In this document: positions 1,187-36,455 of the stretch, piece by piece | How positions within the stretch are numbered: the stretch's first letter is position 1 | Layout: the number at the start of each line of letters is the position of its first letter | IMG/VR virus record: IMGVR_UViG_3300032157_000033 | Span: 1 to 36,455 of that record | From: a virus | Strand: one strand, 5' to 3' | Length of the DNA: 36,455 nt | Made by a program: the position numbers and the translations under genes | Notes under the pieces: model-generated | Database searches by the model: none | The model's input: only the letters and a program-made list of their open reading frames with translations | What the model was told of the DNA's origin: nothing

Positions 1187-3127
1187 TCAACGCTTCCACC
1201 CCTTCACCCACCCGCCGCCGCGAGGGCGCCCCATCCACGGTCGCTTCGGCGGCTTCTTTGGCGCCGCCGGAGCCGGGCCCACCTCCTCCGGCGGCCGCGG
1301 CGCGTCACTTGGCGCCGGACGCGCCGACCCGTCGGGCCGCGTCGAGAACTTCTCGGCGCGCACGCGCAGCACGCGGGCCGCCTGCGGTCCGAGCAAGATA
1401 TGCAGAGCCGCCAGGGAGTAGACCTCGAGGTCGAGCGCCTCGTTGCGGTCGCGGATCTTCGACCACTTCGTGACCACGTGCTTGCCGCCCGTCGTCTTCA
1501 CCACCTGGCGCAGGAGCTTCTCGGCGGTGAGCTGGTCGACGTACTCGCGATCGATCTCCGTGGGCAGGTGCATGTAGCCAATGCCCGGCTTCGCGATGCG
1601 CAGGCGTGAGTGCACGGTCTCCTTGCCGGTGTTGACGCACAGCGGGTAGACGCGCGTCCTGTAGGAGTTCCGTGCTCGGGGCCGGCCGAGCAGTGGCTTC
1701 CCCCACTCCTTCGTCCCGATGACCGCGAACACGCGACGGTTCGCGCGCGCCTTGCAGAACTCGTAAACGCGGTCGGGCTTCCAGTTGGAGTCCACCGCGA
1801 CGCACTCGACGCGCAGCTTGCGGCCGCTCGCGTGCTCCCACGGCGCGAGCAGCTTCTGGTCGAGGTCGAGCCACACCTGCCCCTGCGTGGGATCCCCTGG
1901 CACGGAGCCCCACTCGAGCAGCCAGCTCTCCTCGCCGGCGCCGTAGCCCTTGATCTGGTACTCGAGCCGGTCGCCCTGGACATCCACGGCTGCGACTATG
2001 GCGCCGACACCGTCCGGCACCTCGGCGGGGTACGTCTCTCGGCGCGCGAAGATCACGTCGGGCTCGACCGTGTCGGCGCGGTCCTCGAACGTCTCGGCGA
2101 GCACCGTGTTCACGAATGTCTTCAGCTGGGACGGGTCGTTCTTCGCCTGCAGCCATTCGAAGACCGCGTCCTCCCAGGAGAACATGCCGACCGGCGAGTA
2201 GAGCGCGTTCAAGTGGAACCCGACCGTCCGACCATCGCCATTCGCCGTCGCGCGCCACTGCCCGCGCTCGAGCATCTGGGTCTTCGAGCCCTCGTCGATC
2301 AGCGCCCCGCACTTCACGCAGAGCAGCGTGGCTGTCTTCGGGTCGTCGTTCCGGTAGTCGATGTTCTCCCAGCGAATCGTGTCGAAGTGGTCGCAGTGCG
2401 GGCAGGGCACGAAGTATCGGCGCTGGTCGCTCTGCAGCATCAGCTTCTCGATCGCGGAGTGGTCCTTGAGGCTGGGCGTCGACGCGAACAGCTTCTTGCC
2501 GCGGCGGAACGTGGCCGTGCGTTTCTCGGCCAGCTTGATCGGGCTGCCTTCGCCGTCGACGTCGTCGGGGTATCCGTCGACCTCGTCGCAGAACAGGTTT
2601 TTGATCGGGGTGCTGCGCAGGCTCACGGCGGAGTTCGCACCCGCGATCTTCAAGAACCCACCACGGAAGCGCTTGCGGCGGATGGTGCTGTCGCTGTTCC
2701 GGGACTTGTTCGCGAGCGCTCGTTCGGTCAGCACTGGCACGTTCTCGATGAGCGGCGCGATGCGCTCCTTGGAGACGTCCTCGGCCATGTCGATCGTCGG
2801 TTGGACCATCATCATCGAGCACGGCGCCAGGTGCATGGTGAACCCGGTCCACGCGAGCCCCAGCGTGGTCTTTGCGGTCTGAGCACCCCACTGCAGCACG
2901 ACCCGCTTCGTGGGGCTGCTCGGTGAGAGCTCGCGCATCGGCTCGACCACGTAGGGAGTTCTGGACGTCCGGTACTGGCCGCGCTCGGCGCTGGTCTCGT
3001 TCGGGAGCGTGAGGAAGGTGTCCGCCCAGACGTCGATCGTCATGTCCGGGTCTCGGCGCAGGCCCTCACGCCAGGCTGCTCCGAAGATGACCTCGGCCGG
3101 TGCTAGCTCGAGCGCCGTGCTCGCCAT
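1187..3127 (-). CDS. Phage terminase large subunit, GpA family
   Basis: The packaging motor and cos-cleaving nuclease, 646 aa, close to the usual GpA length. The open frame extends upstream to 3589, but the ATG at 3127 gives a sensible N-terminus (MASTALELAPAEV) and overlaps the preceding gene by only 25 bp. The ATPase part has a P-loop-like GAQTAKTT at residues 81-88 and a Walker B-like FCDEVD at 179-184. Two Cys pairs near residues 245-290 (CPHC, CVKC) form the zinc-ribbon seen in GpA proteins. The nuclease half contains VAAVDVQGDRLE and VAVDSNWK, acidic motifs of the RNase H-like fold. The C-terminal 60 residues are a Pro/Arg-rich tail. Context: small terminase two genes upstream; toxin operon downstream. 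Confidence 0.95.
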   Translation of the reverse strand: MASTALELAPAEVIFGAAWREGLRRDPDMTIDVWADTFLTLPNETSAERGQYRTSRTPYVVEPMRELSPSSPTKRVVLQWGAQTAKTTLGLAWTGFTMHLAPCSMMMVQPTIDMAEDVSKERIAPLIENVPVLTERALANKSRNSDSTIRRKRFRGGFLKIAGANSAVSLRSTPIKNLFCDEVDGYPDDVDGEGSPIKLAEKRTATFRRGKKLFASTPSLKDHSAIEKLMLQSDQRRYFVPCPHCDHFDTIRWENIDYRNDDPKTATLLCVKCGALIDEGSKTQMLERGQWRATANGDGRTVGFHLNALYSPVGMFSWEDAVFEWLQAKNDPSQLKTFVNTVLAETFEDRADTVEPDVIFARRETYPAEVPDGVGAIVAAVDVQGDRLEYQIKGYGAGEESWLLEWGSVPGDPTQGQVWLDLDQKLLAPWEHASGRKLRVECVAVDSNWKPDRVYEFCKARANRRVFAVIGTKEWGKPLLGRPRARNSYRTRVYPLCVNTGKETVHSRLRIAKPGIGYMHLPTEIDREYVDQLTAEKLLRQVVKTTGGKHVVTKWSKIRDRNEALDLEVYSLAALHILLGPQAARVLRVRAEKFSTRPDGSARPAPSDAPRPPEEVGPAPAAPKKPPKRPWMGRPRGGGWVKGWKR

Positions 3128-3375
3128 CGCTTCATCGCCTCCACGAATGCGTACCGGTCCACCGGGAGGGCGCCCGCCGCGACGGCCTTCTTCCTCCAGC
3201 CCGGGCTCAGGTCGAAGTGAGGGACCGAGCTCCGTGCCTGGTACCAGCGCATCGGAAGGCCGATGCGGATGGCGAAGTCGAGCAGCTCGGTCTCGCTGGC
3301 GTCCGACAGCATGTGGCACGCGACCCCGCCCGGCCACGGCGCGCCGCATGGACGGCAGGCGTCCACGACGATCAC
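3103..3375 (-). CDS. DUF4031 family protein
   Basis: A 90-aa protein with a GTG start at 3375. It begins MIVVDACRPCG and contains CHMLSDASETELLDFAIRIG, RWYQ and PHFDLSPGWRKKAVAAGA, the spaced His/Asp/Trp pattern of the DUF4031 family, which is common in phages and has no established function. It sits between the two terminase genes: GTGA overlap with the small subunit and 25-bp overlap with the large subunit, so the three are translated as one unit. The conserved Cys and His residues suggest metal binding, but that is inference. Confidence 0.75.
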   Translation of the reverse strand: MIVVDACRPCGAPWPGGVACHMLSDASETELLDFAIRIGLPMRWYQARSSVPHFDLSPGWRKKAVAAGALPVDRYAFVEAMKRWRARRSS

Positions 3376-3992
3376 GCGGTCCCCGCCGAGTCCCCCAGGT
3401 CTTCCGTGGTGGCCAGCGCGTCGAGCGCGTTCTCGATCTCGCCACGCAGCAGCGCTCGAATGCCGTCTGCGCTGGCCATGCCGGCGAGCGTGTCCGAGAT
3501 CCGGTCGGGGATGCTCTCGAGGATGTCGCGCGCGGCGCGGGCGGACCGGAACGCCTTGTCGCGGACCGCGGCCGCGGACACGAGTTCACCCATCTCGCGC
3601 GCCAGCTGCAGCGCGGCGATACGCGCCTTCGTCAGCTCGTGCATCGTCCGGGCATCGGTGAGCGTGATGCCTTCGATCGACGGGATGTATCCGTCCACCG
3701 AAAGGGCGGCCGCCCGGACACCAGGCGCCGCGCGCGCGGTCGTGTTCGCAGCCCAAGCCTTGTCGGCTGCGGCCTGGTCGATGAGCCCGCGCGAGTCCGC
3801 GTGGATCCGCCCCTCGCGGAGCGCCTTCGAGACCGCTTCACGCGAGACCCCGCGGTGGCGCGCGTACTGGGCCGGAGACACGCGCTGCTGCGGAGCGACA
3901 GCGCGCGCAGGTTTCGGAGCAGGCTTCGCCGGCTTCCGTCGCGGCGCGCGCTTCCGACCCGCGCTGGCCGCGGCCGCTCGCTTCTTCGTCAT
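3372..3992 (-). CDS. Terminase small subunit (Nu1-like)
   Basis: A 206-aa protein. Residues 1-36 are a basic Ala/Lys/Arg/Pro tail. Residues 38-80 resemble a winged HTH (RVSPAQYARHRGVSREAVSKAL, then GRI and GLID), like the DNA-binding domain of lambda Nu1. Residues 100-200 are helical, including an Arg- and Ala-rich helix (LTDARTMHELTKARIAALQLAREMGELV) typical of the oligomerisation part of small terminases. In lambda-type phages this subunit binds repeats in the cos site just upstream of its own gene; the gap 3993-4198 holds suitable repeats. Its overlaps with the DUF4031 gene and position before GpA support the call. Confidence 0.8.
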   Translation of the reverse strand: MTKKRAAAASAGRKRAPRRKPAKPAPKPARAVAPQQRVSPAQYARHRGVSREAVSKALREGRIHADSRGLIDQAAADKAWAANTTARAAPGVRAAALSVDGYIPSIEGITLTDARTMHELTKARIAALQLAREMGELVSAAAVRDKAFRSARAARDILESIPDRISDTLAGMASADGIRALLRGEIENALDALATTEDLGDSAGTA

Positions 3993-4964: not shown

Positions 4965-5521
4965 GAACCGACCTGCTCTTCGGTGCCCTTCCAGACGAAC
5001 TCGCTGAGCGGCCTATGCGTGTGGCAGTGGACGCAGAACGTGCCGTTGTAGAAGCCGGGATCTCGGGCGTACGTCTCAGCGATCTTCCGGCCCATCGTGG
5101 TGTCGGTCCCGCAGTTCAGGTGGGTATAGGTGTCGCGCAGCGGTCGCACGAACCCCTTGGATCGCTCGTCATCTGTCAGGACGACGTAGGCCTTCTGCAT
5201 GCCAGAGCCGGCCTGGATCGTTCGATGATCAGCCGTGACGGGCGAGCCGTCAGTCAGCATCGTCTTACTTCGGTCGGCCGGCGGGGCAAACGACGACAGG
5301 ATCAGGTCGCGAACCGGCTTGAGCACATCGCTCCATGCTGGCGACCGCTGCACAGCGCGCATCTCTTCCGGCGTGAGCTTCCGTACGATGCCCTCGACGA
5401 TGAGCGAGATGCCGGCGCACGACTCACAGATCAGCGGTGCGAGTGTTGGGAACTGAGCTGAGCCGACGACAGCCAGCTCCTTGAACTCGAAGCCGCAGTG
5501 AGGGCAATGGGCAGCCATCAC
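4961..5521 (-). CDS. Hypothetical zinc-binding protein
   Basis: A 186-aa protein. It starts with a zinc knuckle (HCPHCG) followed about 20 residues later by CESC, then a helix-rich middle, and ends with a second possible metal site (FCVHCHTHRPLSEF). That C-terminal pattern resembles a treble-clef or HNH-like half site, but no catalytic HNH signature is complete. Its ATG overlaps the upstream stop as ATGA. One of at least five Cys-knuckle proteins in this operon. Confidence 0.55.
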   Translation of the reverse strand: MMAAHCPHCGFEFKELAVVGSAQFPTLAPLICESCAGISLIVEGIVRKLTPEEMRAVQRSPAWSDVLKPVRDLILSSFAPPADRSKTMLTDGSPVTADHRTIQAGSGMQKAYVVLTDDERSKGFVRPLRDTYTHLNCGTDTTMGRKIAETYARDPGFYNGTFCVHCHTHRPLSEFVWKGTEEQVGS

Positions 5522-6651
5522 TCACCCCACAGGAACAGGGCATCTGTCCCGGGCACGCTGACCACCCGCACCGGTACCGTGCTGCCAATGGCCTTCCATC
5601 GCGCATACACGAAGTCGTGCGTGATCAGCGCGCCGGTCGGGTTGAGGAGCACCACGCCGTGCTCGAAGAATCGGACATAGAGCCCGCTCGCCAGCCGCAC
5701 CCATACGCCGAGCGGTTGCCCCAGCCATCCGACGTACTTCCCGGTGGGGTCCGGCCTCCCCTGTGGATCCACGGCGTACTCGGGGAACCACAGCTCGGCC
5801 TGGTAGGGCGTCGTGACCTCCTGCAATCCGTAGGTCACCGTGGCGCCGGTCATGCAGGCCGTGCCGAGCATGAACCTCACCAGGCGTGGATCGCCCCACG
5901 AGCCCGGCGTGTGCTCGCTCTTGAGCCAGTCGCCGTCCTTCTGCGTGATCGCCTTTGAGAACGGGGCGAGGGTGCCGGGGAACCCCTCGATCATCGTGCC
6001 GTCCAGCCCCGTCTTCTCCGCTCCGGGTCCGTTGCCGTAGATCCGGAACCCAGGGCCGAGCTCCCTGCGCATCTTGCTAGCCCAGGCGCGGAGGTTCGCG
6101 ATGCGCACCTGGTCGTTGAGCTCGTTGCTGCCGATACCCATCGTCTTCACCTCGGGCCACCAGTAGTCGGCGAACCAGGAGCTCGCCCCCAGGCGCCTCG
6201 CTCCCCACACGGCGAGCGAGGCCATTGAGTCGGCCGTCGCCTTCCTCGCGATGTTCACCTGCAGCCCCTTGGGCCATGAGTTCTCGATGCCGCCCGTCGC
6301 CTTCAGGTTGTTGTGCCAGTAGGCGGCGAACGTCTTGTCCCACGGCTGCGTGACGAACGTGTCAGGCAGGTACCAGTGCGTCGTCAGGAAGTACGGGATG
6401 ATCTCGATGTCCGGCCGGTAGTGCCGCAGCGTCGGGGCCACGTTCGGCTGCATCAGCAGCTGGCTCACGTCCACGACGACCCTCGGCCAGCGCGCGAGCT
6501 TCTGGCACATCGCCGAGTCGACCGATCCGTCCGGGCGAGCGAGCGGCTGGCACGGAGTACGGACGCCGATGTACGCGCCGATCCGTGGGTAGGGCTGGGC
6601 GTGGGCGATCGAGGCGAGGAGCAGCGAGGCGAGGAGCACTTTCAGGCGCAT
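5518..6651 (-). CDS. Secreted glycoside-hydrolase-like protein (GHL15-like)
   Basis: A 377-aa protein. The ATG at 6651 was chosen because it gives a clean signal peptide: MRLKVLLASLLLASIAHA, with likely cleavage after AHA at residue 18. The mature part looks like a TIM barrel: strands VVVDVSQLL and IEIIPYF, an acidic motif WFADYWWPEV and TMIEGFP as candidate catalytic carboxylates. The C-terminal signature WFPEYAVDP, LGQPLGVWVR, FFEHGVVLLNPT matches what I recall of the putative glycosyl hydrolase family 15 (GHL15). Export from the host cell is implied, which is unusual for a phage gene outside the lysis module. It overlaps the upstream gene by 10 bp. Substrate unknown; capsule, exopolysaccharide or cell wall are options. 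Confidence 0.65.
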   Translation of the reverse strand: MRLKVLLASLLLASIAHAQPYPRIGAYIGVRTPCQPLARPDGSVDSAMCQKLARWPRVVVDVSQLLMQPNVAPTLRHYRPDIEIIPYFLTTHWYLPDTFVTQPWDKTFAAYWHNNLKATGGIENSWPKGLQVNIARKATADSMASLAVWGARRLGASSWFADYWWPEVKTMGIGSNELNDQVRIANLRAWASKMRRELGPGFRIYGNGPGAEKTGLDGTMIEGFPGTLAPFSKAITQKDGDWLKSEHTPGSWGDPRLVRFMLGTACMTGATVTYGLQEVTTPYQAELWFPEYAVDPQGRPDPTGKYVGWLGQPLGVWVRLASGLYVRFFEHGVVLLNPTGALITHDFVYARWKAIGSTVPVRVVSVPGTDALFLWGE

Positions 6652-7064
6652 TGGACTTCCTCCATGACCGGGGGTCGGGCGTGGGCCCGGTGTTCGACGT
6701 GATGGCAACGTGGGCAGTGACGGTCGAAGCCGCGGCCGGCGCCGAGCTCGCAGCCGTCGCACGGCTTGAGACCGAAGAGGGGCCTGTCGCTCGGCCAGTG
6801 GGAACTCAGCCGCTCGTACTGGCAGGCCTCGCAGCGCTCGACAGACGTCACGCGCGGCGCCATCTCGGCGTCCGTGGCATCCAGGCGGCACGGCATGCAC
6901 TCGAAGAGCCCGAGGGCGATGTTCACGAACGCCTTGGTGCCACGGTTGCCGGTGGTCGCACCGGGATGCGTGCGCGGGATGTCCGCGCCGCAGAAGTGGC
7001 AGCGCTGATCGCGCATGATGTAGCGCGCCGGGGTCCAGAGCCGCGGGTCGCCGGTCGGGCTCAT
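6642..7064 (-). CDS. Multi-zinc-knuckle protein
   Basis: A 140-aa protein with five Cys pairs: CHFCG, CMPC, CEAC, CDGC and CPRC. This is enough for two or three zinc sites. The ATG at 7064 overlaps the preceding stop by ATGA. No catalytic signature is seen. It may be a nucleic-acid or protein-binding zinc-ribbon array; function unknown. It is translated immediately before the secreted hydrolase. Confidence 0.6.
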   Translation of the reverse strand: MSPTGDPRLWTPARYIMRDQRCHFCGADIPRTHPGATTGNRGTKAFVNIALGLFECMPCRLDATDAEMAPRVTSVERCEACQYERLSSHWPSDRPLFGLKPCDGCELGAGRGFDRHCPRCHHVEHRAHARPPVMEEVQCA

Positions 7065-7222
7065 CGTGCGAGCCAAGTGGCGGCGCTGAAGGCGACCCAG
7101 AGCGCGATCATGACGACCAAGAGGCGCCAGCGCAGGGGTAGTGTGCGCACGAACACCTCGTAGATGAGCATGCCGACGACCACGCCGATGATCGAGATCG
7201 CGACATCGAGCGTGGCACTCAC
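7061..7222 (-). CDS. Small two-helix membrane protein
   Basis: A 53-aa ORF with GTG start at 7222. Residues 7-20 (VAISIIGVVVGMLI) and about 33-48 (LLVVMIALWVAFSAA) are hydrophobic, separated by a short charged loop (YEVFVRTLPLRWR). It fits exactly between its neighbours: GTGA overlap with the methyltransferase stop and ATGA overlap with the next start. Topology would allow a holin-like or membrane-anchor role next to the surface-modifying genes, but nothing decides between these. Confidence 0.55.
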   Translation of the reverse strand: MSATLDVAISIIGVVVGMLIYEVFVRTLPLRWRLLVVMIALWVAFSAATWLAR

Positions 7223-7740
7223 GACTGCCACCCACCGGCAGGGACCTTGAGGATCCCGAAGCCGCGCCAGGTCTGAAGCGCGATGCCGCCGTGGGCCTCG
7301 ACCCAGCCGGCCAGCGGCGGGATCTCGTGGTTGTAGGAGATGCTCGTGTCGTGGACCACGATGATCGCGCCGGGCTTCACGGCGAGCATCTCCTCAACGC
7401 GCGCGGCGTAGTCGGAGTCGCAGAACACGAAGTCGGCCTGGCGCAGCTCGGGTAGGTCGATGCCGCGGCAGTTGCGGACATCCCACACCGGAGCGTTGCC
7501 GCTCAGCCGCTGACACGTTTCGAGCACTCGCGCGGGATCGGTGTCGCAGGTCAGGACGCGTGTGTACCCGACCAGCTCCGCGGCATGGACCAGGCGGAGT
7601 GTGGTCCGACCATCGAAGCAGCCTGTCTCAACGACGAGACGAGGGCGCAGTAGACACACCATCGCGTAGAGGAAGTCCTGCACCTCGAGCTCGGTTCCAG
7701 CGTCAGAGTGCACCGTCAGGCCGTGAGGATCCTTGTGCAT
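7219..7740 (-). CDS. Class I SAM-dependent methyltransferase
   Basis: A 173-aa protein. Motif I is VVETGCFDGRTTLRL (about residues 36-50), followed by an acidic end of strand 2 (LTCDTDPARV, 63-72) and a strand-4 motif (ADFVFCDSD). A later IIVVHDTS resembles the CmcI/cephalosporin-hydroxylase-like branch, where these residues hold a metal. That branch includes sugar O-methyltransferases. The ATG overlaps the glycosyltransferase stop by one base (TGATG). The tight link suggests it methylates the sugar or acceptor handled by that enzyme, for example on host surface glycans; this is inference. Confidence 0.7.
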   Translation of the reverse strand: MHKDPHGLTVHSDAGTELEVQDFLYAMVCLLRPRLVVETGCFDGRTTLRLVHAAELVGYTRVLTCDTDPARVLETCQRLSGNAPVWDVRNCRGIDLPELRQADFVFCDSDYAARVEEMLAVKPGAIIVVHDTSISYNHEIPPLAGWVEAHGGIALQTWRGFGILKVPAGGWQS

Positions 7741-8387
7741 CACGCCTCCCAGTGGGCCTCGGACACGGTCGAGAATCCGATGCCGAGGTGGTTGTGCCGG
7801 ACGCCCTTCAGGAAGCCGAGGCGGCCGTGGTCGCGCGCCATGGCGCTCATGCGCGGGTCGTAGGTGTGGGCCGTGGTGTCCGGGATCAAGAACGACTCGG
7901 GCTGGATCTGTCCGCTCCGAGCGAAGTACGGCGTGCCCAGGCCGATGCTCTCGAAGACCTCGTCGTCGTCCTCGGGCCTGCCCGGAAGGGAGCCCTGCAC
8001 CAGCTCGGGGACCACCTCGCCGTTCACGCTCCAGGACGCGAGCAGCGCGTACCTCGGGTGTTCGAGGAGCACGCGCGCGCCGCGCACGGCCCAGTCGCGC
8101 GCGATGGGCAGGTGGTCGTCGTCCATCACCACGTAGACGTCGGACTGGGCTATCTGAGCCGCGCCGAACTTCGTCCACTCGTGATAGCGCTGCCTGCCGA
8201 TGGCGATGCACGTGGCGCCAGTGAAGCCGAGGTTGGCCAGCGCGTCCGGACCACCTGTCTCGTGCATGAGCGCGAACAACCGGATGCCCTCGAGCATCCT
8301 GAGGCGCTCCAGGACGAGGCCGGCCATGCGCTCGCGCAGTGGGTGTTGCGGCCACACCTTCACGAACACGTCGATGGGGGCGCTCAT
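7740..8387 (-). CDS. Glycosyltransferase-like protein (GT-A fold)
   Basis: A 215-aa protein. It begins with a strand IDVFVKVWPQHP and has a central VYVVMDDDHLP (about residues 84-94), the DxD-type nucleotide-sugar and metal site expected of GT-A enzymes. A His-rich C-terminal GVRHNHLGIGFST could close the active site. No transmembrane segment is visible. It is coupled on both sides (ATGA with csrA, TGATG with the methyltransferase). Possible targets are host surface glycans (blocking superinfection) or phage DNA bases; no base-modifying partner is seen, so the surface role is preferred. Confidence 0.6.
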   Translation of the reverse strand: MSAPIDVFVKVWPQHPLRERMAGLVLERLRMLEGIRLFALMHETGGPDALANLGFTGATCIAIGRQRYHEWTKFGAAQIAQSDVYVVMDDDHLPIARDWAVRGARVLLEHPRYALLASWSVNGEVVPELVQGSLPGRPEDDDEVFESIGLGTPYFARSGQIQPESFLIPDTTAHTYDPRMSAMARDHGRLGFLKGVRHNHLGIGFSTVSEAHWEA

Positions 8388-8623
8388 GAGATCGACCCGC
8401 CGTCGTACTCGTCGTCTGCAGGCTCGACGATGGGCGGCGCGCCGCGGCGCCTGGGCTCAAGCCCCAGCTTCACGCGGCGGTAGACCTCGAAGCGGTGCAC
8501 GTCGACGCCCGACGGTGCTTCGAAGCCGAGCTTCACCTTGCCGCCCGAGTACTCGAGCACGGTGACGCAGACGTCGTCCCCGACCATGACCTTCTCACCC
8601 AGACGCCGAGTCAGCACCAGCAC
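8384..8623 (-). CDS. csrA: CsrA/RsmA family RNA-binding regulator
   Basis: A 79-aa protein. The GTG at 8623 gives the canonical start MLVLTRRLGEKVMVGD, with GGGAGG 4 nt upstream. The GFEAPSGVDVHRFEVY segment holds the second RNA-binding strand, and Arg44 falls exactly where the key arginine of E. coli CsrA lies; Leu4 also matches. The host family binds GGA motifs in 5' leaders, blocking or stabilising mRNAs, usually as a dimer. This copy has an extra acidic tail of about 20 residues (IVEPADDEYDGG). It overlaps its upstream neighbour by 29 bp and the glycosyltransferase by ATGA. It may rewire host carbon, biofilm or surface-sugar genes, or control phage mRNAs. Confidence 0.93.
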   Translation of the reverse strand: MLVLTRRLGEKVMVGDDVCVTVLEYSGGKVKLGFEAPSGVDVHRFEVYRRVKLGLEPRRRGAPPIVEPADDEYDGGSIS

Positions 8624-9098
8624 GAGACCTCCCTGTTCCGGTTCCCTGCAGCTCCATGCCGGACGCATCCCTCGCGCCGGCGCTCATCGGCCCCTCGGCT
8701 CCGTGCTCGCGCGCGGGCCAGCGGGCCCCCAGCGCGCGCAGCTTCTCGATCGTCCGGCGGTTGAGCGCCGGGTAGCCCTCACGGCTCGCCTGGTCGAGCA
8801 CGCGCGCCAGGAGGCGCGGGTGGGGCCGGGTCTCCATGACCCAGCGGTAGAGCTCGACCTGCAGCTCGGCGTAGCGCTCGCGATCGCGCTCCCGGGCGGC
8901 GTTCTGCGCCTGGCGAGCGTCGGCCTCGCGCTGGCACCAGGTGACCAGCAGCCCCGCGGGGTTCTCGACCATCCCCGGGAGCCGCTGTGCCATCTCGAGC
9001 ACGTTCGCGACGTGGAGCTGGACGTCCACGCCGAGGGGTCCGAGCTGTGCGTTCAGGCGACGGATGAGGCTCTCGGGAATCAGGTCGGCATGGTTCAT
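8595..9098 (-). CDS. Hypothetical protein, possible replication-accessory
   Basis: A 167-aa largely helical protein starting at the ATG 9098, with GGGGAGAGG just upstream. Residues 70-90 are a charged Gln/Ala/Arg/Glu helix (ADARQAQNAARERDRERYAE), probably a coiled coil; the end is disordered. It overlaps the DUF1376-like gene by ATGA and csrA by 29 bp. Position directly after a DUF1376-like gene suggests a helicase-loader or DnaT-type role, but no motif proves it. Confidence 0.55.
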   Translation of the reverse strand: MNHADLIPESLIRRLNAQLGPLGVDVQLHVANVLEMAQRLPGMVENPAGLLVTWCQREADARQAQNAARERDRERYAELQVELYRWVMETRPHPRLLARVLDQASREGYPALNRRTIEKLRALGARWPAREHGAEGPMSAGARDASGMELQGTGTGRSRAGADSASG

Positions 9099-10351: not shown

Positions 10352-10735
10352 TCAGTGCGCGCGGCCGCGGTCGCCGCGGATGCCACCCTTCGCCAGCGCA
10401 GCGCTCACCTTGTCGAGCGGCGCACTGACCGTCTTCCCCGTCGCGGGGTCCTTCATCGAGACCGTCGCCGCCGTCTCGCCGCGATCGCTCGGCGCCGGCA
10501 GGAGCGCGTCCTGCTGCGAGTCGCGCACGGTGATGCTCACCATCCGGCCGAGGACCAGGTCGCTCCACGCGGCGTCCTTCTCGACGACCAGCACGGCCTT
10601 CGTGTGCTTGTCCGCAGCGGTGGTGGCCGGTGTGATCGAGAGCGCGATCTTCACGAGCTCGAGATCCGGGTAGTCCTTCGGATTGGGCGAGAAGATGGCG
10701 TGGCCGATGACGCGGCCCTGGACCTCGTACTTCAT
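10352..10735 (-). CDS. Hypothetical protein
   Basis: A 127-aa protein beginning MKYEVQGRVIGHAIFSPN, with AGGGGG upstream of the ATG at 10735. It is beta-rich with a regular strand pattern (VKIALSITPA, KAVLVVEKDA, GRMVSITVRDSQ), which would suit an OB or similar barrel, and ends in a basic Gly/Arg tail. A single-strand DNA-binding role would fit next to the nuclease gene, but no family is recognised. ATGA overlap with the nuclease gene. Confidence 0.55.
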   Translation of the reverse strand: MKYEVQGRVIGHAIFSPNPKDYPDLELVKIALSITPATTAADKHTKAVLVVEKDAAWSDLVLGRMVSITVRDSQQDALLPAPSDRGETAATVSMKDPATGKTVSAPLDKVSAALAKGGIRGDRGRAH

Positions 10736-11217
10736 CGGGTTCCCCCTTGAGTGGATTCGGTGCGGGCCACGGGAGCCGACCCCTCGGCCTCCCCGCGCTT
10801 GCGGTTCTCCGTTCCACCCGCACCGAACTGTGTGCGGCCGGTGCCCACGAAGGGCTCCAGCTCGCGGACGTCGCGGACGACCAGGCAGAGAGCGCCGGCC
10901 GCCTCGAACTTCTCGTGCAGCTCGCGCTGCTCGCGGGAACGCCTCGCGCGCCCGCTCTTGATCTCGAGGAGCGCCAGGCGTCCGTCGGGCGGCAGGCACG
11001 CCATGACGTCCGCCATGCCGACCTGGAGCCGGTTGCGGCGCAGCTGGAACGCGCCGCCGGAGATCGGCGCCACGCGCGGCCCGGTGTGGATGGGCGTGGC
11101 AGGGCAGCCCGAGAGCCGTAGGTAGGTCAGGACGGCCGCCTGCAGCTGCTCATGGGCCGCGAGCGAGCCGATGGGCATGCGCCTTAACTGGGCGGCCGTG
11201 ACGCGCTGGGTGCTCAC
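10732..11217 (-). CDS. VRR-NUC-type nuclease
   Basis: A 161-aa protein with GTG start at 11217 (GTGA overlap). The core VGMADVMACLPPDGRLALLEIKSGRARRSREQ contains the PD-(D/E)xK elements: Asp70 and Glu85-Ile-Lys87, followed by the conserved R.S.EQ helix. This matches VRR-NUC proteins, which are common in phages and include Holliday-junction resolvases and structure-specific nucleases. The C-terminal 35 residues are Gly- and Glu-rich and probably disordered. Role: probably recombination or genome processing before packaging. Confidence 0.75.
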   Translation of the reverse strand: MSTQRVTAAQLRRMPIGSLAAHEQLQAAVLTYLRLSGCPATPIHTGPRVAPISGGAFQLRRNRLQVGMADVMACLPPDGRLALLEIKSGRARRSREQRELHEKFEAAGALCLVVRDVRELEPFVGTGRTQFGAGGTENRKRGEAEGSAPVARTESTQGGTR

Positions 11218-11405
11218 GAGCCACCTCCTGCCTTGCGGCGCGCCCGCGCGTGCTCCATCAGCGCGCAAGCCCACATCTGACCGAGAGAGCGCAGCGACTC
11301 GTCGTCCAGCGCCTCGACAGGCAGGTGGCCGCCTTCCGTGGTGAGCAAGAAGTTGGGGAGCCTCGGCAGCTCCACCTTCGCGACGACGTTCACGATGGTG
11401 ATCAC
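11214..11405 (-). CDS. Small hypothetical protein
   Basis: A 63-aa protein with GTG start at 11405 (GTGA overlap with the preceding gene). Sequence begins MITIVNVVAKVELPRLPNF and ends with a helical, Arg-rich segment. No family recognised. Exact overlaps on both sides make it likely real. Confidence 0.5.
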   Translation of the reverse strand: MITIVNVVAKVELPRLPNFLLTTEGGHLPVEALDDESLRSLGQMWACALMEHARARRKAGGGS

Positions 11406-11776
11406 GCGCCGGCCTCCAGCCTCGAGGAGTGGACGAACAGGTCCTCGCGCATCCGGCGCTGCCCGCCGTCGTGGGTGAGGTCCTGGAACACGACCCAACC
11501 CACGGGGATCCGCTTGGTGGAGCGTTTGGACGGCGGGCCCGCGGGATCCAGGCGCACGACTCGGACGCGCTGGACCCCGCGGCGCCACACCTGACCCGGC
11601 GCCGGCACGATCTCCGGCACCAGGTCGCGCCCCGAGACGGCCTTGGGCACCTGCTGCACGGGGAGCGAGCCCTTGTAGGCGCCGTTCCGGGCAGCCGCCG
11701 TGGGGTCGTAGGCGGGCTCCTTGAGCGCGCTCGCGACGTACAGGTCACGAAGCTCCGACCGACGCAGCCGTGCCAT
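11402..11776 (-). CDS. Hypothetical protein, possible small beta barrel
   Basis: A 124-aa protein. The middle, PGQVWRRGVQRVRVVRLD and then VGWVVFQDLT, has the look of a small SH3-like barrel; the N-terminus is a basic helix. GGAG lies before the ATG at 11776. Function unknown. The 49-bp spacer before it could encode only a 16-codon GTG ORF, which I did not call. Confidence 0.5.
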   Translation of the reverse strand: MARLRRSELRDLYVASALKEPAYDPTAAARNGAYKGSLPVQQVPKAVSGRDLVPEIVPAPGQVWRRGVQRVRVVRLDPAGPPSKRSTKRIPVGWVVFQDLTHDGGQRRMREDLFVHSSRLEAGA

Positions 11777-11825
11777 CCCTAGGCTCCTGCCACCCGGCTG
11801 CGCGGTCGGTCATACACGAGGTGCG

Positions 11826-12017
11826 TCACGCGGCGCGCCCTCGCTTGGTGCGGTTGGAGCTCGCAGCCCGCTCGCGCTCGAGGCGGCGCAGCTGGCGCAC
11901 ACGCTCGTCGGCATCGCGGGCTTTCCGGTGGGCCAGGCGGGCATCCGCCAGGGCCTTCCGGTGATCTTCGTGGGCGTCGAACGCGTCGCTGTGAGCCTTC
12001 GCCAGTGCGTTCTTCAT
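11826..12017 (-). CDS. Small charged coiled-coil protein
   Basis: A 63-aa protein from the ATG 12017. Nearly all of it is one charged helix rich in Ala, Arg, Asp and His (KAHSDAFDAHEDHRKALA), so a coiled coil is likely. It ends in a basic tail. ATGA overlap with the membrane-protein gene before it. Function unknown. Confidence 0.5.
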   Translation of the reverse strand: MKNALAKAHSDAFDAHEDHRKALADARLAHRKARDADERVRQLRRLERERAASSNRTKRGRAA

Positions 12018-12238
12018 CGTCCGTTCCCTCCGTGGTGACGGTCCTGTGTGACGGCCCGCAGCGCCGGCGCGACGGCCGAGCTGAGGGCGGGTGACGACAC
12101 TTCGCGCGGCTCTTGGGCGCAGCTCGCGATGAGCAGCGCCACAAGCAGCAGCACGACGACGAGCAGGAGGCCGCAGGTCCACTTCCAAAGCTGGAGCTCG
12201 TGATCCCTCGACCGCGCCGCTTCCATGTCTGGTGTCAT
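12014..12238 (-). CDS. Small membrane protein
   Basis: A 74-aa protein with one strong hydrophobic helix at residues 20-40 (TCGLLLVVVLLLVALLIAS) preceded by a charged cytoplasmic segment. A Cys at the end of the helix (IASCAQE) resembles a lipobox, but its distance from the N-terminus and the charged start make lipoprotein processing uncertain. ATGA overlap with the upstream gene. Confidence 0.5.
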   Translation of the reverse strand: MTPDMEAARSRDHELQLWKWTCGLLLVVVLLLVALLIASCAQEPREVSSPALSSAVAPALRAVTQDRHHGGNGR

Positions 12239-12717
12239 GCCCCGGGCATCTCGCCGTTGGGCTCCGCCGAAGTGTCCGGGAGCGGATCGGTGGCGATGAC
12301 CTCGCCGGCGGCGCGCCGCATGGCGGTGGCCTGCTCGACGAGCAGGGTCGGCACGCGTTGGAGCGCGTCCTTGGAGCGGCACGTGGGACACGTGTATCCG
12401 CTGGCGAGTCCGAGCTTCTCGCAGTCGCAGAAGCCCGCGGCGTTCCGCTGGTGGTCGGCGATCACCTGCAGGAGCGCGTCGCCCTCGAGCGTGGGCGGAC
12501 GCTGCATGATCACGTTGAGCGCGGGGACGTCGAACCCTGCCGAGGGCAGTCCACCGAGGGCGTCGCCCTCGAGCAAGAGCTCGACGCACCAGTCCTTGAA
12601 CCGGGCATCGACAACGCGGACATCCCCGAACGTCTCTGCGGGAACAGCCCGCTGGAAGCCGTACTTGAGAGTGAATCCAATCAGGGCATCGGCAACCTTC
12701 ACCACAGCGCGGCCCAT
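12235..12717 (-). CDS. Hypothetical protein with zinc ribbon
   Basis: A 160-aa protein. The C-terminal half holds CDCEKLGLASGYTCPTC, a compact four-Cys zinc site. The N-terminal half is mixed alpha/beta without motif. The ATG at 12717 shares one base with the stop of the gene before (TGATG). Function unknown. Confidence 0.55.
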   Translation of the reverse strand: MGRAVVKVADALIGFTLKYGFQRAVPAETFGDVRVVDARFKDWCVELLLEGDALGGLPSAGFDVPALNVIMQRPPTLEGDALLQVIADHQRNAAGFCDCEKLGLASGYTCPTCRSKDALQRVPTLLVEQATAMRRAAGEVIATDPLPDTSAEPNGEMPGA

Positions 12718-12980
12718 CAGGCCCTCCTTGGCTTCGCCGCGATGCGGACGCACCCGGCGTGGTCGTGGATGAACCCCTCGCAGAGCAGGCGCTTGTCGGC
12801 CCAGCTCGAGGTCGAGGGAACGTTCAGGCGATCGCCGCAGCTCGAGCAGTGCAGGTGAGAGCCGCGCAGCTGCACCCAGCTCAGGTCGTAGCCGTAGTGC
12901 TCGACGTGCTGCACCGGCGTCATGCCGCGGCCCAGCGGCTCGAGGAGCAGGTCGGCGGTCGCGAGTGGGGCGTGCGTCAT
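12717..12980 (-). CDS. Small Cys/His protein
   Basis: An 87-aa protein from the ATG 12980, overlapping the preceding gene by ATGA. It contains LHCSSCGDRL and LCEGFIHDHAGC, together a likely zinc site. Two other genes in this stretch carry similar knuckles. Function unknown. Confidence 0.5.
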   Translation of the reverse strand: MTHAPLATADLLLEPLGRGMTPVQHVEHYGYDLSWVQLRGSHLHCSSCGDRLNVPSTSSWADKRLLCEGFIHDHAGCVRIAAKPRRA

Positions 12981-13468
12981 CGCCCCGTCTCCCCGATGCC
13001 GGGCAGGAGCGCTGGCATCCGGCCGCTCTGGTACATCGCCTCGAGCTGGGGCCTGAGCCACGCCCCCACGGTGCTGCCGTCGGCCATGACGGTGTCGGCG
13101 AGGAACTCTCGCTCGAAGCTCGAGATGCCGGCCTCCATGGCCTCGAACTTGGCCAGCATGATGAGCAGGATCGCGCGCCACCTGGCGCGGCAGGCCTGCT
13201 CCCACAGCTGGCGCTGCTTCTCCTTCGGGTACTGCTTCCACGAGTAGCCACCGCGAGTGCGACGGTGGAGGAACCGCTTCTCCTCGTGACCCGGGAGCGG
13301 CACCGCCAGGCGGACCATCCGGCCCTGCATCGTCCAGCCGATGATGGCCGCCCCGGTGTTGTGGTCGAACGCGCTCATGAACTGCGTGGCGCCCTTCTCG
13401 CGCACGAGGTCCTCGATCTGCAGGCGCGTGCGCTCGACGGGGACGGTGGTGCCGGCGGCGTAGGTCAC
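12977..13468 (-). CDS. Conserved phage protein next to ParB-like gene
   Basis: A 163-aa protein with GTG start at 13468 (GTGA overlap with the ParB-like stop). It starts MTYAAGTTVPVERTRLQIED and continues with QFMSAFDHNTGAAIIGWTMQ, GRMVRLAVPLP, a pattern I recall from conserved phage proteins encoded near replication or ParB-like genes. A Trp-rich helix follows (WEQACRARWRAILLIML). No molecular function is established to my knowledge. Confidence 0.6.
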   Translation of the reverse strand: MTYAAGTTVPVERTRLQIEDLVREKGATQFMSAFDHNTGAAIIGWTMQGRMVRLAVPLPGHEEKRFLHRRTRGGYSWKQYPKEKQRQLWEQACRARWRAILLIMLAKFEAMEAGISSFEREFLADTVMADGSTVGAWLRPQLEAMYQSGRMPALLPGIGETGR

Positions 13469-15084
13469 TTCTTCCCGCCCTTCACCCTGGCGGCCTTCTT
13501 CGCCTTCGCCTTGGGTTTCTCGGGCGCAGCGGGGGCCACCGGCTTCGGCTTCTCGGCGGCCTTGCGTTCCGCGAGCACTTCGGCGCGCGCCCTCTTCGAA
13601 AGATCCGCGTAGCTGATCCCGAGCACCTTCAACCCGACGTTGGGCGCCTCGCTGACCGCCAGGAGGAAGACCATGGCGTTGCGTTGCGAGGGCTTGAACG
13701 ACTTGATCTTCGCCCCCTTGGGGGCACCGACCGCTGCTACCACCTCGTCATCGTCACGCCACGAGATCTCGCGCAGGGCCTCCAGGGCGAGATCCAACAG
13801 AGCCTGCGGGGAGAGCTTCATAGCGGCCTGCGCGATCGCGAGGTCCTCGAGCTTCTCGGTCTTCTTCCGCACGGCCTCATCCAGAGCGTGGTCGTGCACG
13901 GGCGCCGGCTTCGCCATGCGGTTGTCCTGCTTCGGGCCCGCCTTGCCCGCGACCGCCGCCTCGACCTCGGCACGCTTCCAGATCGAGACGGGCTTACCGG
14001 TCTTCGGGTGGCGCGCGACGTACTCGCGAGGCTTCACTCCGCCCGGGCTCTTCGAGACGAGCTCTTTCCACGTGCGACCGTTCGCCCCTGGCGTGGTCGC
14101 GCGCATGTCCGGGTGCACCCACGGGTCGCCATCGAACGGCCGTCCAGCCGCTGTGTCGCGGAGCACCTTCGCTGACTGCTCGAGGGTCATGACTTTCGCG
14201 CCGCGCTGGTCGGCTGCGATGGTCTCCTTCTGCCACGCCGCGACACGCTTCGTCGCGAAGCATCCCGTGTCGGTGCACAGGTCCTTCCCCTTCCCGAGGT
14301 CGCCGAAGAGGTCGGGCATGTTGCCCGTGCGCTTGGGACACGTGCTACACGGGCCCGCGACGGGCACCAGGGACGCGTCGAGGATGTCGAATGGTGCCGC
14401 GCGCATGTCGAGCATGTACTCGTCTTCGACGAGCTCAGTGGCCTCACGCACGGAGAGCGGCGAGGTCTCCTGCATGCCGGTCCGGGTGTTGAAGCCGGTG
14501 AACCTGCCCTGCATGATCTTCTCGGCCGCCTCCGCCTGGAGCTTCTCGTCAGGGATCCGCGCAATCAGGAGCGCCAGCGAGGCGTTCATCTCGTTCGTCC
14601 AGAACAGCTCGCGCGCGACCTTGGGCAGCTTCAGGAGCGCCATGCGCTGGTAGACGTAGGCCTTCGACTTCCCGAGCTTCCGCGCCAGGTCTTCGACCGT
14701 GTAGCCGTGGACCTGTGTGAGCCGCTGGTAGCCTTCGGCCTCCTCGAGCGGGTGCAGGTTCTCCCGCTGGAGGTTCTCGATGACCTGCACCTCGAGTGCC
14801 TCGACGTCCGAGAGCTCGCGCACGAGTGCGGGGACGGTATCGAGCCCGGCCGCCTGGGCCGCGGCGTGGCGACGGTGGCCACAGACGATCTCGAACGTCG
14901 GCATGCCGACAGGTGCGTCATCCAGCCGACGCACGAGCACCGGCTGCAGGATGCCGTGGCGACGGACGGACTCGACCAGGTCGGCGAGCGACTTCTCGTC
15001 AGCGGTGCGTGAGCGGGGGTTGGTGTGCGACGGCGCGATGCTCGCGACGGGGATGGCCTGGACTTCGATGGCCTGCGCTTCCAT
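13465..15084 (-). CDS. Large phage ParB/Spo0J-like protein
   Basis: A 539-aa protein from the ATG 15084, preceded by GGAGGAACCAC, one of the best ribosome sites in the window. The ParB N-domain spans about residues 8-115: IPVASIAPSHTNPR, GHRRHAAAQ (69-77), ENLQRENLHPLEEA (103-116). An HTH follows (YTVEDLARKLGKSKAYVYQR, 128-147). Residues 230-400 include a CSTCPKRTGN and CTDTGC zinc-like region seen in long phage ParB-like proteins. The tail is Lys/Ala/Pro-rich. Classical ParB uses CTP and spreads from parS; no parA is present, so partition is unlikely and a DNA-binding, nuclease or transcription role is more plausible. Confidence 0.85.
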   Translation of the reverse strand: MEAQAIEVQAIPVASIAPSHTNPRSRTADEKSLADLVESVRRHGILQPVLVRRLDDAPVGMPTFEIVCGHRRHAAAQAAGLDTVPALVRELSDVEALEVQVIENLQRENLHPLEEAEGYQRLTQVHGYTVEDLARKLGKSKAYVYQRMALLKLPKVARELFWTNEMNASLALLIARIPDEKLQAEAAEKIMQGRFTGFNTRTGMQETSPLSVREATELVEDEYMLDMRAAPFDILDASLVPVAGPCSTCPKRTGNMPDLFGDLGKGKDLCTDTGCFATKRVAAWQKETIAADQRGAKVMTLEQSAKVLRDTAAGRPFDGDPWVHPDMRATTPGANGRTWKELVSKSPGGVKPREYVARHPKTGKPVSIWKRAEVEAAVAGKAGPKQDNRMAKPAPVHDHALDEAVRKKTEKLEDLAIAQAAMKLSPQALLDLALEALREISWRDDDEVVAAVGAPKGAKIKSFKPSQRNAMVFLLAVSEAPNVGLKVLGISYADLSKRARAEVLAERKAAEKPKPVAPAAPEKPKAKAKKAARVKGGKK

Positions 15085-20184: not shown

Positions 20185-20639
20185 CGCACCAACCTCCGCA
20201 CAAGATCCAGGTCGAATGCCTTCCCCGGGCAGGTCTTCTCGGGGTTGAAGTCGCGATGCCCGACGATCTGCTCGGGCGGGATCCCGAACTCGCGCATCCA
20301 GGGCAGCACGATGCGCCTGACCAGAACCTCGATCGTGCGCAGCGGGGGTGGCGCCAGATCGAAGTTCCCGACGATGCACGCGTGCAGCGCCAGGCGGTTC
20401 ATGCCGCCCTGCGGGCAGGCGGACGCTTGGTCGTATGGCGCGCGGCCGAACAGGGCCTGCACCCTGTACGTCTCGAGGTCGGGGTTGTCGGTGACGATCT
20501 CCACCCCCGCGTGGTAGCCCACGTCGCGCCAGCCCTCGGTCTCGCGGTGGTACTTCTCGATCGCGGCCCACGACACGGTCGCGCCGTCCTTGGTCAGCGA
20601 GTGGTGGATCATGATGAACTCGCGCCGGAGCCCGATCAC
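20181..20639 (-). CDS. N-acetylmuramoyl-L-alanine amidase endolysin
   Basis: A 152-aa enzyme with GTG start at 20639 (GTGA overlap). It fits the zinc amidase family of T7 lysozyme: FIMIHHSLTKDG supplies the first ligand (His12), LHACIVGNFD is the conserved core strand, and IVGHRDFNPEKTCPG supplies His128 and Cys137. It would cleave between the sugar and peptide of peptidoglycan. No signal peptide, so release needs a holin. Length matches T7 lysozyme (about 150 aa). Confidence 0.92.
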   Translation of the reverse strand: MIGLRREFIMIHHSLTKDGATVSWAAIEKYHRETEGWRDVGYHAGVEIVTDNPDLETYRVQALFGRAPYDQASACPQGGMNRLALHACIVGNFDLAPPPLRTIEVLVRRIVLPWMREFGIPPEQIVGHRDFNPEKTCPGKAFDLDLVRRLVR

Positions 20640-21403
20640 AGCCGCACCCCCGTAAGCGCGTAGACGAACGCGGCGTCCACTTGACGCTTGAGCTCGGCTG
20701 CGTAGAAGCGCGCCGCGATCTCCTGACCGGTCTGGATGAAGCGCAGGCGCCGGTCGAGCCGCGAGGGCGGCTTGAACGAGTAGACCGTCCGGATGTCGTC
20801 CCGCCCTGGCCCCACGCGCTGGAACACGCCGCCCTTCGGTGCCTTCCTCGTCTGCGTGAGCAGAAACGTCCGGTGCGCTCCCTTCCACTGAACGGTCCCG
20901 CGACTGCTGATGTGGGCGGCCAACGTGATCTGCGTGCGCCGTTTGCGCTTCTGCTGCCCGCGCGGGGTCACGCGCCGGAGGGACAGGCCCGCGAACGTGA
21001 ACGGCTTCGGAACGCTCGAACCGAACGATGGCCGCGCCGGACCTCCCGTGATCGGGACGGCCACGTTCTTGCCCTTCACCGGCCGGCGCAGGTCGCCCGC
21101 CTCGAACCCCGACAGGAGCAGGCGCGGCTTCTGCCCCACGGAGATCCGCGCCTCGAACCGGCGCTGGGACACACTCGCGAACCCGCTCCCTCCCGCGGCC
21201 GCCCGGATGACGGCCGCCTCGCGCAGCACGAAGTCGCGCTTGCGCAGCGTGAACTGGGACTGCACCCGAGCCCGCTCACCGCGCTGGATCTCCTTGGCCG
21301 TGTTGTTGAGTGCATTCACCACGGCGAACGCCATGCGCTTGCCACCGTTTTTCAGTAGCGCGATGGGCTTCGCCGCGTCGATGCTGATGGTCACGATCGC
21401 CAT
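20636..21403 (-). CDS. Minor tail protein, gpZ-like
   Basis: A 255-aa basic protein from the ATG 21403 (TGATG overlap with the tail-tip stop). The start MAIVTISIDAAKPIALLKNG and FAVVNALNNTAKEIQRGERARVQ have the look of lambda gpZ and related head-tail connection proteins, with a conserved helix for tail-neck binding. The middle is rich in Arg, Lys and Gly. In lambda Z sits early in the tail module; here it comes after the tail-tip gene, so its assignment is uncertain. Confidence 0.5.
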   Translation of the reverse strand: MAIVTISIDAAKPIALLKNGGKRMAFAVVNALNNTAKEIQRGERARVQSQFTLRKRDFVLREAAVIRAAAGGSGFASVSQRRFEARISVGQKPRLLLSGFEAGDLRRPVKGKNVAVPITGGPARPSFGSSVPKPFTFAGLSLRRVTPRGQQKRKRRTQITLAAHISSRGTVQWKGAHRTFLLTQTRKAPKGGVFQRVGPGRDDIRTVYSFKPPSRLDRRLRFIQTGQEIAARFYAAELKRQVDAAFVYALTGVRL

Positions 21404-33424: not shown

Positions 33425-33556
33425 CGGCCGGAGCCACTCGCGGGATGCCCGCGCGCTCCGACCTCACGGGCGTGACCTTGTGCGAGGCGAGAGCGCTGAC
33501 GCCATTACAGAATAACTTGAATGTTCCCCGCCCCCTCCGATGTGCATGCTGCGCGC
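33425..33556. promoter_or_regulatory. Divergent intergenic region, likely late promoters
   Basis: This 132-bp gap separates the leftward protease-capsid gene from the rightward joiner-portal genes. It includes an AT-rich patch (33505-33530, ATTACAGAATAACTTGAATG) that stands out from the GC-rich genome, and a minus-strand TGTAAT that could be a -10. No convincing -35 partner is visible for either direction, so a phage activator may be needed. Confidence 0.4.
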
Positions 33557-34093
33557 ATGCCGAATCTCAGCGCGCTGCCCGATACGATTACGAACGGGAC
33601 CTACGTCGCCTACACGAAGGCGTTCGCCGACTACCCCGCGAACGCGGGCTGGTCGATGGCGCTCCACATCGCGGGCAAGTCGAAGCTCTCAAAGAACGCG
33701 GTCACGAGCGGAGCGTCCTTCGTCGTGACGCTGGCCACCTCGGACACGGACGACCTCGAGCCCGGGCAGTACCAGTGGGTCGAGCGCGTCACCAATGGTG
33801 CGGAGGTCTACGACGCCGCCTGCGGGCAGCTGATCGTGAAGCCAAACCTCGCGACGGCCGCCCCAGGCGCACTGCAGACGTGGGAGGAGAAGACGCTGGC
33901 CGTTGTCGAGGCCGCGCTCTCCGGCAGCCTCACGAGTGACATCGAGACCTACCAGATCCACGGCCGGTCCGTCTCGCGGATGAGCCGCAGCGAGCTGCTG
34001 CGCATCCGGAACGCGCTCAAGGTGAGCATCCAGCGCCAGAGGAACGGCGGCAGGATCGGCCAGAACTTCCGCACGCGCTTCACGAGGTCCTAG
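33557..34093 (+). CDS. Head-tail connector candidate with gpW-like C-terminus
   Basis: A 178-aa protein. The start at ATG 33557 gives MPNLSALPDTITNGTYVAY; the frame is open from an ATG at 33521 as well. Residues 1-90 are a beta domain (GASFVVTLATSDTDDLEPGQ, YQWVERVTNG). Residues 110-170 read like gpW: SDIETYQIHGRSVSRMSRSE, then LLRIRNALKVSIQRQ. Lambda W joins the portal ring to the tail and lies directly before the portal gene B, as here. The N-terminal domain is an addition relative to the 68-aa lambda W. Confidence 0.55.
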   Translation: MPNLSALPDTITNGTYVAYTKAFADYPANAGWSMALHIAGKSKLSKNAVTSGASFVVTLATSDTDDLEPGQYQWVERVTNGAEVYDAACGQLIVKPNLATAAPGALQTWEEKTLAVVEAALSGSLTSDIETYQIHGRSVSRMSRSELLRIRNALKVSIQRQRNGGRIGQNFRTRFTRS

Positions 34094-34096
34094 ATC

Positions 34097-36330: not shown

Positions 36331-36455
36331 CTACTCCCCGGTCAGGCCGAGGGAGAGCCCCTGCTGGCTACGATTGATGCCTTGGAGGAGTTCCTGCTTG
36401 TCGATGCTCCGAGTCGCAGCGCTCGCGTAGGACTGCACGCCAGCGATCGCGATGT
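36331..36455 (-). CDS. 3' end of small ORF crossing the window ends
   Basis: A minus-strand frame enters from the right edge and reads 40 residues (beginning IAIAGVQSYASAATRSIDKQ, ending SLGLTGE) to a TAG at 36331-36333. Read from position 19 through 1 to 36455 it stays in frame and makes a 47-aa protein. That protein would be the last gene of the toxin-antitoxin operon. It resembles no family I know. Confidence 0.5.
   Translation of the reverse strand, partial: IAIAGVQSYASAATRSIDKQELLQGINRSQQGLSLGLTGE

What the first reader, a model, noticed from the sequence alone, without database searches (positions are those of the whole stretch)
7219..8623. Coupled csrA - glycosyltransferase - methyltransferase cassette
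Three genes overlap by ATGA and TGATG, so they are translated together: a CsrA with the key Arg44 intact, a GT-A-like enzyme with DDDH, and a class I methyltransferase. CsrA in hosts controls exopolysaccharide and surface programmes. A phage that brings this RNA regulator together with sugar-transfer and methylation enzymes could re-programme the host envelope at both the RNA and glycan levels. I know of phage CsrA genes but not of this combination.
Basis: partly seen in the sequence, partly recalled or inferred. Interest (0 to 1): 0.75.

Follow-up and report, generated by a model that had tools for sequence, protein, structure and literature searches.

The report
Phage csrA gene with private cargo
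A temperate phage carries an intact-looking copy of the bacterial RNA regulator CsrA that may repress its own translation, followed by two cargo genes (a possible sugar transferase and a methyltransferase) that its nearest relatives lack, so the trio is a local arrangement and not a conserved machine.

Summary
The three overlapping genes exist at the stated place, on the minus strand of what is probably a complete 36.5-kb temperate phage genome. CsrA is convincing (Pfam 71.4 bits; L4, R6, R7, R44 present). The methyltransferase clears Pfam's Methyltransf_24 cut-off. The "glycosyltransferase" has a DDDH motif but no detectable relative in any library searched. The ATGA/TGATG overlaps are ordinary here: 18 of 47 same-strand neighbours overlap by 1 or 4 nt. 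The trio was found nowhere else. A genome-wide syntenic sister (IMG/VR 3300049448_000640) and a more distant relative (3300033067_002333) keep csrA in the same place without the other two genes. So csrA is old in this lineage and GT-MT is private cargo placed right behind it. An unreported feature: the csrA ribosome-binding site carries GAACAGGGAGGU, the best match to the E. coli CsrA SELEX consensus among 52 gene starts. The sister has GUACAGGGAGGU (11/12), also the best of its called starts, and the second-best site in the window lies at the MT start codon. The likeliest mechanism is CsrA autorepression, with downstream cargo coupled to it. Host-envelope reprogramming remains speculation. 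Moderate interest; a new variant of a known kind (phage-borne csrA).

The parts
8384..8623 (-). csrA, 79 aa, GTG start, acidic C-terminal tail
   Evidence: PF02599 71.4 bits (cut-off 27), phrog_9500 E 4e-19; L4, R6, R7, H43, R44 and E46 present
8627..8638 (-). Candidate CsrA binding site GAACAGGGAGGU over the csrA Shine-Dalgarno
   Evidence: 10/12 to RUACARGGAUGU, best of 52 gene starts; ACAGGGAGGTC identical in the sister, CAGGGAGGTC in three relatives
7740..8387 (-). Orphan 215-aa protein with DDDH (residues 89-92), glycosyltransferase-like by motif only
   Evidence: No Pfam, PHROG, NCBIfam or PDB sequence match; no homologue in phages, plasmids, viral or genome contigs
7219..7740 (-). Class I SAM methyltransferase, 173 aa
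   Evidence: PF13578 Methyltransf_24 29.5 bits, cut-off 26.3
7727..7738 (-). Weaker candidate CsrA site GCACAAGGAUCC in codons 1-5 of the methyltransferase gene
   Evidence: 9/12, second best of 52 starts
7061..7231 (-). 56-aa predicted membrane protein, not matched in the sister phage
6642..7064 (-). Cysteine-rich gene that marks the far boundary of the insertion; 63% identical in the sister, where it follows csrA after one small unrelated ORF
8595..9098 (-). Upstream neighbour, 63-66% identical in the sister, overlapping csrA in both
5518..6651 (-). Protein with an apparent signal peptide; tblastn 24% (global alignment 29%) identical homologue in the sister; function not established

Best explanation
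This is a phage-borne CsrA that controls its own translation and sits at a fixed position in one temperate phage lineage, with lineage-specific cargo inserted behind it. Proposed mechanism: the CsrA dimer binds the ACAGGGAGGU element over its own ribosome-binding site, possibly bridging to the second AGGGA 13 nt upstream, and blocks ribosomes when CsrA accumulates. The GT-like and methyltransferase starts overlap the preceding stops, so their translation would follow csrA, and a second site at the methyltransferase start could add direct repression. Free CsrA would also act on other phage or host messages. The two enzymes would then modify a glycan, possibly at the host surface, at a dose tied to CsrA. 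Shown by sequence: gene order, overlaps, CsrA key residues, the site and its conservation, and absence of GT and MT from the relatives. Inferred: RNA binding, autorepression, coupling, enzyme activities and substrate.
For: CsrA family match and RNA-contact residues. csrA is syntenic in G003 (60% aa) and in L115 (51%), without GT or MT. The csrA leader is the top CsrA-consensus site of 52 starts in the window and of the 47 starts called in the sister's two stretches (11/12), and ties for best score (9/12) with three others of 29 starts in the L115 stretch. Permuting the consensus around the GGA core reaches this score at csrA in 0.55% of trials. ACAGGGAGGTC is the longest shared string among true leader pairs of window-sister orthologues, at shifted spacing. 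The two best sites in the genome's initiation regions are both in this trio. Literature: the SELEX consensus has invariant ACA and GGA and nearly invariant GU; E. coli CsrA binds its own leader including the SD; iraD is repressed through translational coupling (PMC7652899). Knock-down of a phage csrA shrank plaques (PMC11879866).
Against: The site overlaps an SD, which supplies the GGA by itself; with the SD held fixed, shuffled leaders reach the same score in 4.2% of trials. The consensus is E. coli's. Enrichment of ACARGGA in viral csrA leaders is weak (7/68 versus 6/181, Fisher p 0.049; counts, test). No unusual folding of the leaders. The analysis was chosen after seeing the sequence. L117, a more distant relative, has no csrA. 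The host is unknown, so its own CsrA and targets could not be examined.
Confidence: 0.5

Rival explanations
1. Coordinated envelope-reprogramming cassette: CsrA retunes host surface programmes while GT and MT alter the surface glycan.
For: Class I methyltransferase with a weak hit to the sugar O-methyltransferase relative RMNT_CmcI; DDDH motif in the GT-like protein; an integrase, hence lysogeny is plausible.
Against: The trio was not found elsewhere; csrA precedes GT/MT in the lineage; no substrate evidence.
Confidence: 0.15
2. Unrelated morons: csrA and the GT-MT pair are adjacent because this stretch between replication genes and terminase collects cargo; no regulatory link.
For: Genes between csrA and the small terminase gene differ between the relatives; overlaps are a genome-wide habit.
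Against: Does not explain the top-ranking CsrA sites at the csrA and MT starts or the conserved extended leader element.
Confidence: 0.25
3. The 215-aa protein and the methyltransferase act on phage components (DNA bases or virion protein) and not on the host envelope.
For: Phages are known to carry DNA- and virion-modifying glycosyl- and methyltransferases (general knowledge); the genes lie just after replication genes.
Against: No DNA-modification partner genes were recognised in the window; Methyltransf_24 is not a DNA methyltransferase family.
Confidence: 0.15

Closest known systems
csrA morons of phages (Pseudomonas F116-like, Vibrio phages, Bcep22-like Lessieviruses such as JC1, PTXU04)
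   Same: Phage-encoded CsrA with conserved RNA-binding residues (PMC7366521, PMC9144972, PMC11879866)
   Different: None of the inspected neighbourhoods has a GT plus methyltransferase; the csrA leader here has an unusually complete CsrA site
Escherichia coli csrA autoregulation
   Same: CsrA site overlapping the csrA Shine-Dalgarno (PMC7652899)
   Different: E. coli has four leader sites and its own promoters; here csrA lies inside a phage operon and the leader lies in the upstream gene's coding sequence. Binding untested
iraD repression by CsrA through translational coupling
   Same: CsrA acts on an upstream overlapping ORF and the downstream gene follows (PMC7652899)
   Different: Here the upstream ORF would be csrA itself; inferred only
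RsmQ, a plasmid-borne CsrA/RsmA homologue
   Same: A mobile-element CsrA that takes global control in its host (PMC9928087, title and abstract)
   Different: Plasmid-borne; tested experimentally

Membership tests
CsrA/RsmA (PF02599) | Match to the family model above its cut-off | tested here: met
   71.4 bits against cut-off 27; NCBIfam equivalog NF002469 71.9 bits, just under its cut-off of 73
CsrA/RsmA (PF02599) | RNA-contact residues L4 and R44 | tested here: met
   Both present
CsrA/RsmA (PF02599) | Dimer that binds GGA-containing RNA | not testable with these tools
   Needs a binding assay
GT-A / Glycos_transf_2 (PF00535) | Match to a glycosyltransferase family model | tested here: not met
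   No Pfam, PHROG or NCBIfam hit
GT-A / Glycos_transf_2 (PF00535) | DXD-type metal motif after a hydrophobic strand | tested here: met
   VYVVMDDDH, D89-D91; the bare motif also occurs in unrelated proteins
GT-A / Glycos_transf_2 (PF00535) | GT-A fold | tested here: inconclusive
   Single-sequence AlphaFold2 model, pLDDT 34.8; ad hoc profile comparison negative but poorly built
Methyltransf_24 (PF13578) | Match above cut-off over the whole domain | tested here: met
   29.5 bits against 26.3, positions 1-105 of 105
Methyltransf_24 (PF13578) | SAM-dependent methyl transfer | not testable with these tools
   Needs an assay
Conserved csrA-GT-MT cassette | Gene order recurs in other genomes | tested here: not met

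The most novel reading that the evidence does not exclude
A self-repressing phage csrA serves as a regulatory landing site: genes inserted directly behind it come under CsrA control through stop-start coupling and their own GGA sites, so the phage meters its lysogeny cargo by RNA-level feedback.
Probability: 0.2. Interest if true: 0.6.

Novelty: new variant of a known kind. Interest (0 to 1): 0.36.

Why it matters
csrA genes are frequent on phages and plasmids, but what they do for the phage is mostly unknown. The CsrA site over the phage's own csrA ribosome-binding site, kept in a sister phage while the downstream cargo changed, gives a simple test: does the phage CsrA repress itself and whatever lies behind it? 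If so, a phage regulator and its cargo form one dosage-controlled unit.

Tried and rejected
Close-relative scans with the GT-like protein and MT in viral contigs, and with the GT-like protein in genome contigs, found nothing. The DDDHLP DNA pattern scan gave 12 contigs with unrelated proteins. AlphaFold2 of the GT-like protein and of the 5518-6651 protein gave pLDDT 35 and 36, unusable, so no fold search was run. HHalign of the GT-like protein against an ad hoc GT2 profile was uninformative, partly because some rows were wrong-strand frames. Terminase searches did not reveal the host. The Pfam scan of 146 csrA-neighbour ORFs lists only the 25 commonest families, so single GT or MT neighbours could be hidden; hence the whole-record GT2 and MT searches on 50 records. 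In those, one record has a GT2 match about 19 kb from its csrA and one has a Methyltransf_24 match at 14.7 kb of a 41.4-kb record, not close to its csrA. PF00535 does not detect the window's own GT-like protein, so that search cannot exclude similar orphans.

Full report
What is there. The window is an IMG/VR virus record of 36,455 bases. A second contig (3300032144_000386, locus L003) matches it at 99.98-100% and runs straight from window end to window start, so the genome closes on itself and is probably complete. It has small and large terminase, portal, capsid, tail, amidase, ParB-like and tyrosine-integrase-like genes: a temperate tailed phage, host unknown. On the minus strand csrA (8384-8623), a 215-aa protein (7740-8387) and a methyltransferase (7219-7740) follow each other with ATGA and TGATG overlaps. 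By a simple codon-based gene caller, 18 of 47 same-strand neighbour pairs in this genome overlap by 1 or 4 nt, so the overlaps are real but not distinctive.

Identity of the products. CsrA matches PF02599 at 71.4 bits and has the RNA-contact residues L4, R6, R7, R44. The methyltransferase matches Methyltransf_24 over the whole model at 29.5 bits, cut-off 26.3. The 215-aa protein has VYVVMDDDHLP, a plausible GT-A metal motif, but matches no Pfam, PHROG, NCBIfam or PDB sequence, and no homologue was found in 50,697 phage records even at E 10, in plasmids, or by pattern scan in IMG/VR or GTDB genomes. Its AlphaFold2 model is unusable. Calling it a glycosyltransferase is an inference from the motif.

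Does the trio recur? Phage csrA is common: 89 phage records, and 279 IMG/VR candidate stretches of which the best 80 loci were kept. In the annotated neighbourhoods inspected there is no GT-MT partner. ORFs in the flanks of the csrA loci contain no homologue of the GT-like protein or the MT. Among 50 whole csrA-bearing records, one has a GT2 match and one a Methyltransf_24 match, neither beside csrA.

A natural experiment. One of those csrA loci (L023; record 3300049448_000640, handle G003) belongs to a genome-wide syntenic sister of the window phage: large terminase 62%, integrase 73%, the gene at 12977-13468 81%, the gene upstream of csrA 63%, csrA 60%, the cysteine-rich gene at 6642-7064 63%. 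In the sister, csrA lies in the same place and is followed by one small unrelated ORF and then the cysteine-rich gene; the GT-like, MT and 56-aa membrane genes are missing. A scan with the 12977-13468 gene gave two further relatives. L115 (3300033067_002333) has csrA at the same position (51% by tblastn) followed by a minor-tail-protein-like gene, again without GT or MT; L117 (3300045303_000331) has no csrA. The parsimonious reading is that csrA is ancestral to the window-G003-L115 group and that GT, MT and the membrane gene were inserted behind it in the window's lineage. Loss in the others is possible but needs more events.

A CsrA site on the csrA ribosome-binding site. The window csrA leader reads GAACAGGGAGGUCUC-GUG. 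Against the E. coli SELEX consensus RUACARGGAUGU (invariant ACA and GGA, nearly invariant GU; PMC7652899) it scores 10/12 and retains ACA, GGA and GU. It is the best of 52 initiation regions, and only two GGA-cored sites in the genome on either strand reach 10. The second-best initiation-region site, GCACAAGGAUCC (9/12), lies in the first codons of the methyltransferase. The sister's csrA leader has GUACAGGGAGGU, 11/12, the best of the 47 starts called in its two stretches; L115 has GACCAGGGAGGU, 9/12, tied with three other starts. ACAGGGAGGTC is shared between window and sister at different spacing to the start codon and is the longest shared string among leader pairs whose start is defined in both. 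A second AGGGA lies 13 nt upstream in the window leader; the reviewed bridging range for a CsrA dimer is 10 to 63 nt. Cautions: the SD supplies GGA anyway; holding the SD fixed, 4.2% of shuffled leaders reach 10, whereas permuting the consensus reaches it in 0.55%; enrichment over all viral csrA leaders is marginal (7/68 versus 6/181, p 0.049); predicted folding is unremarkable. The analysis was post hoc.

Interpretation. I think the most likely arrangement is an autoregulated phage csrA whose repression extends, by stop-start coupling, to whatever cargo lies behind it. Both elements have precedents in E. coli (own-leader binding; iraD coupling; PMC7652899). A phage csrA has been shown to matter for plaque size in PTXU04 (PMC11879866), and CsrA may be in the virion of JC1 (one peptide only; PMC9144972).

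Known versus new. Phage csrA genes have been surveyed before (30 of 2,517 phages in PMC7366521). New here are the private GT-MT insertion beside csrA, the empty counterpart in a syntenic sister, and the conserved CsrA-consensus element on the phage csrA ribosome-binding site. I did not find this last point in the papers read; the paper library is partial.

Noticed in passing
33521-35746 (+) versus 1187-3992 (-) and 31367-33388 (-): Portal and head-tail joining genes are inverted relative to terminase and capsid. The same inversion relative to terminase is seen in the sister G003 (L114 portal 16431-15010, TerL 10633-12564), so it is a lineage feature and not a misassembly.
   Followed up: partly
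window ends; L003: L003 joins window base 36455 to base 1, so the record is a closed, probably complete genome.
   Followed up: yes
5518-6651 (-); L114:5128-6447 and 6480-8627: Proteins with apparent signal peptides lie downstream of csrA in both phages; in the sister one of them has a DUF1565 match. Possible lysogeny cargo; function unresolved.
   Followed up: partly
L115:13923-13971: In this relative the csrA leader can fold a 5-bp stem with loop AGGGA over the SD, the way CsrA targets often present GGA; an extra ACAGGGA lies just upstream.
   Followed up: no
L115:14352-15125: A homologue of the window's minor tail protein (20636-21403) directly follows csrA in L115, far from its position in the window; a sign of module shuffling at this site.
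   Followed up: no
L034:6665-7603: A PAPS reductase domain gene lies close to another viral csrA; JC1-like phages also carry csrA and PAPS reductase.
   Followed up: no
13465-15084: Large ParB-like protein (NCBIfam parB_part 151 bits) in a temperate phage with an integrase.
   Followed up: no
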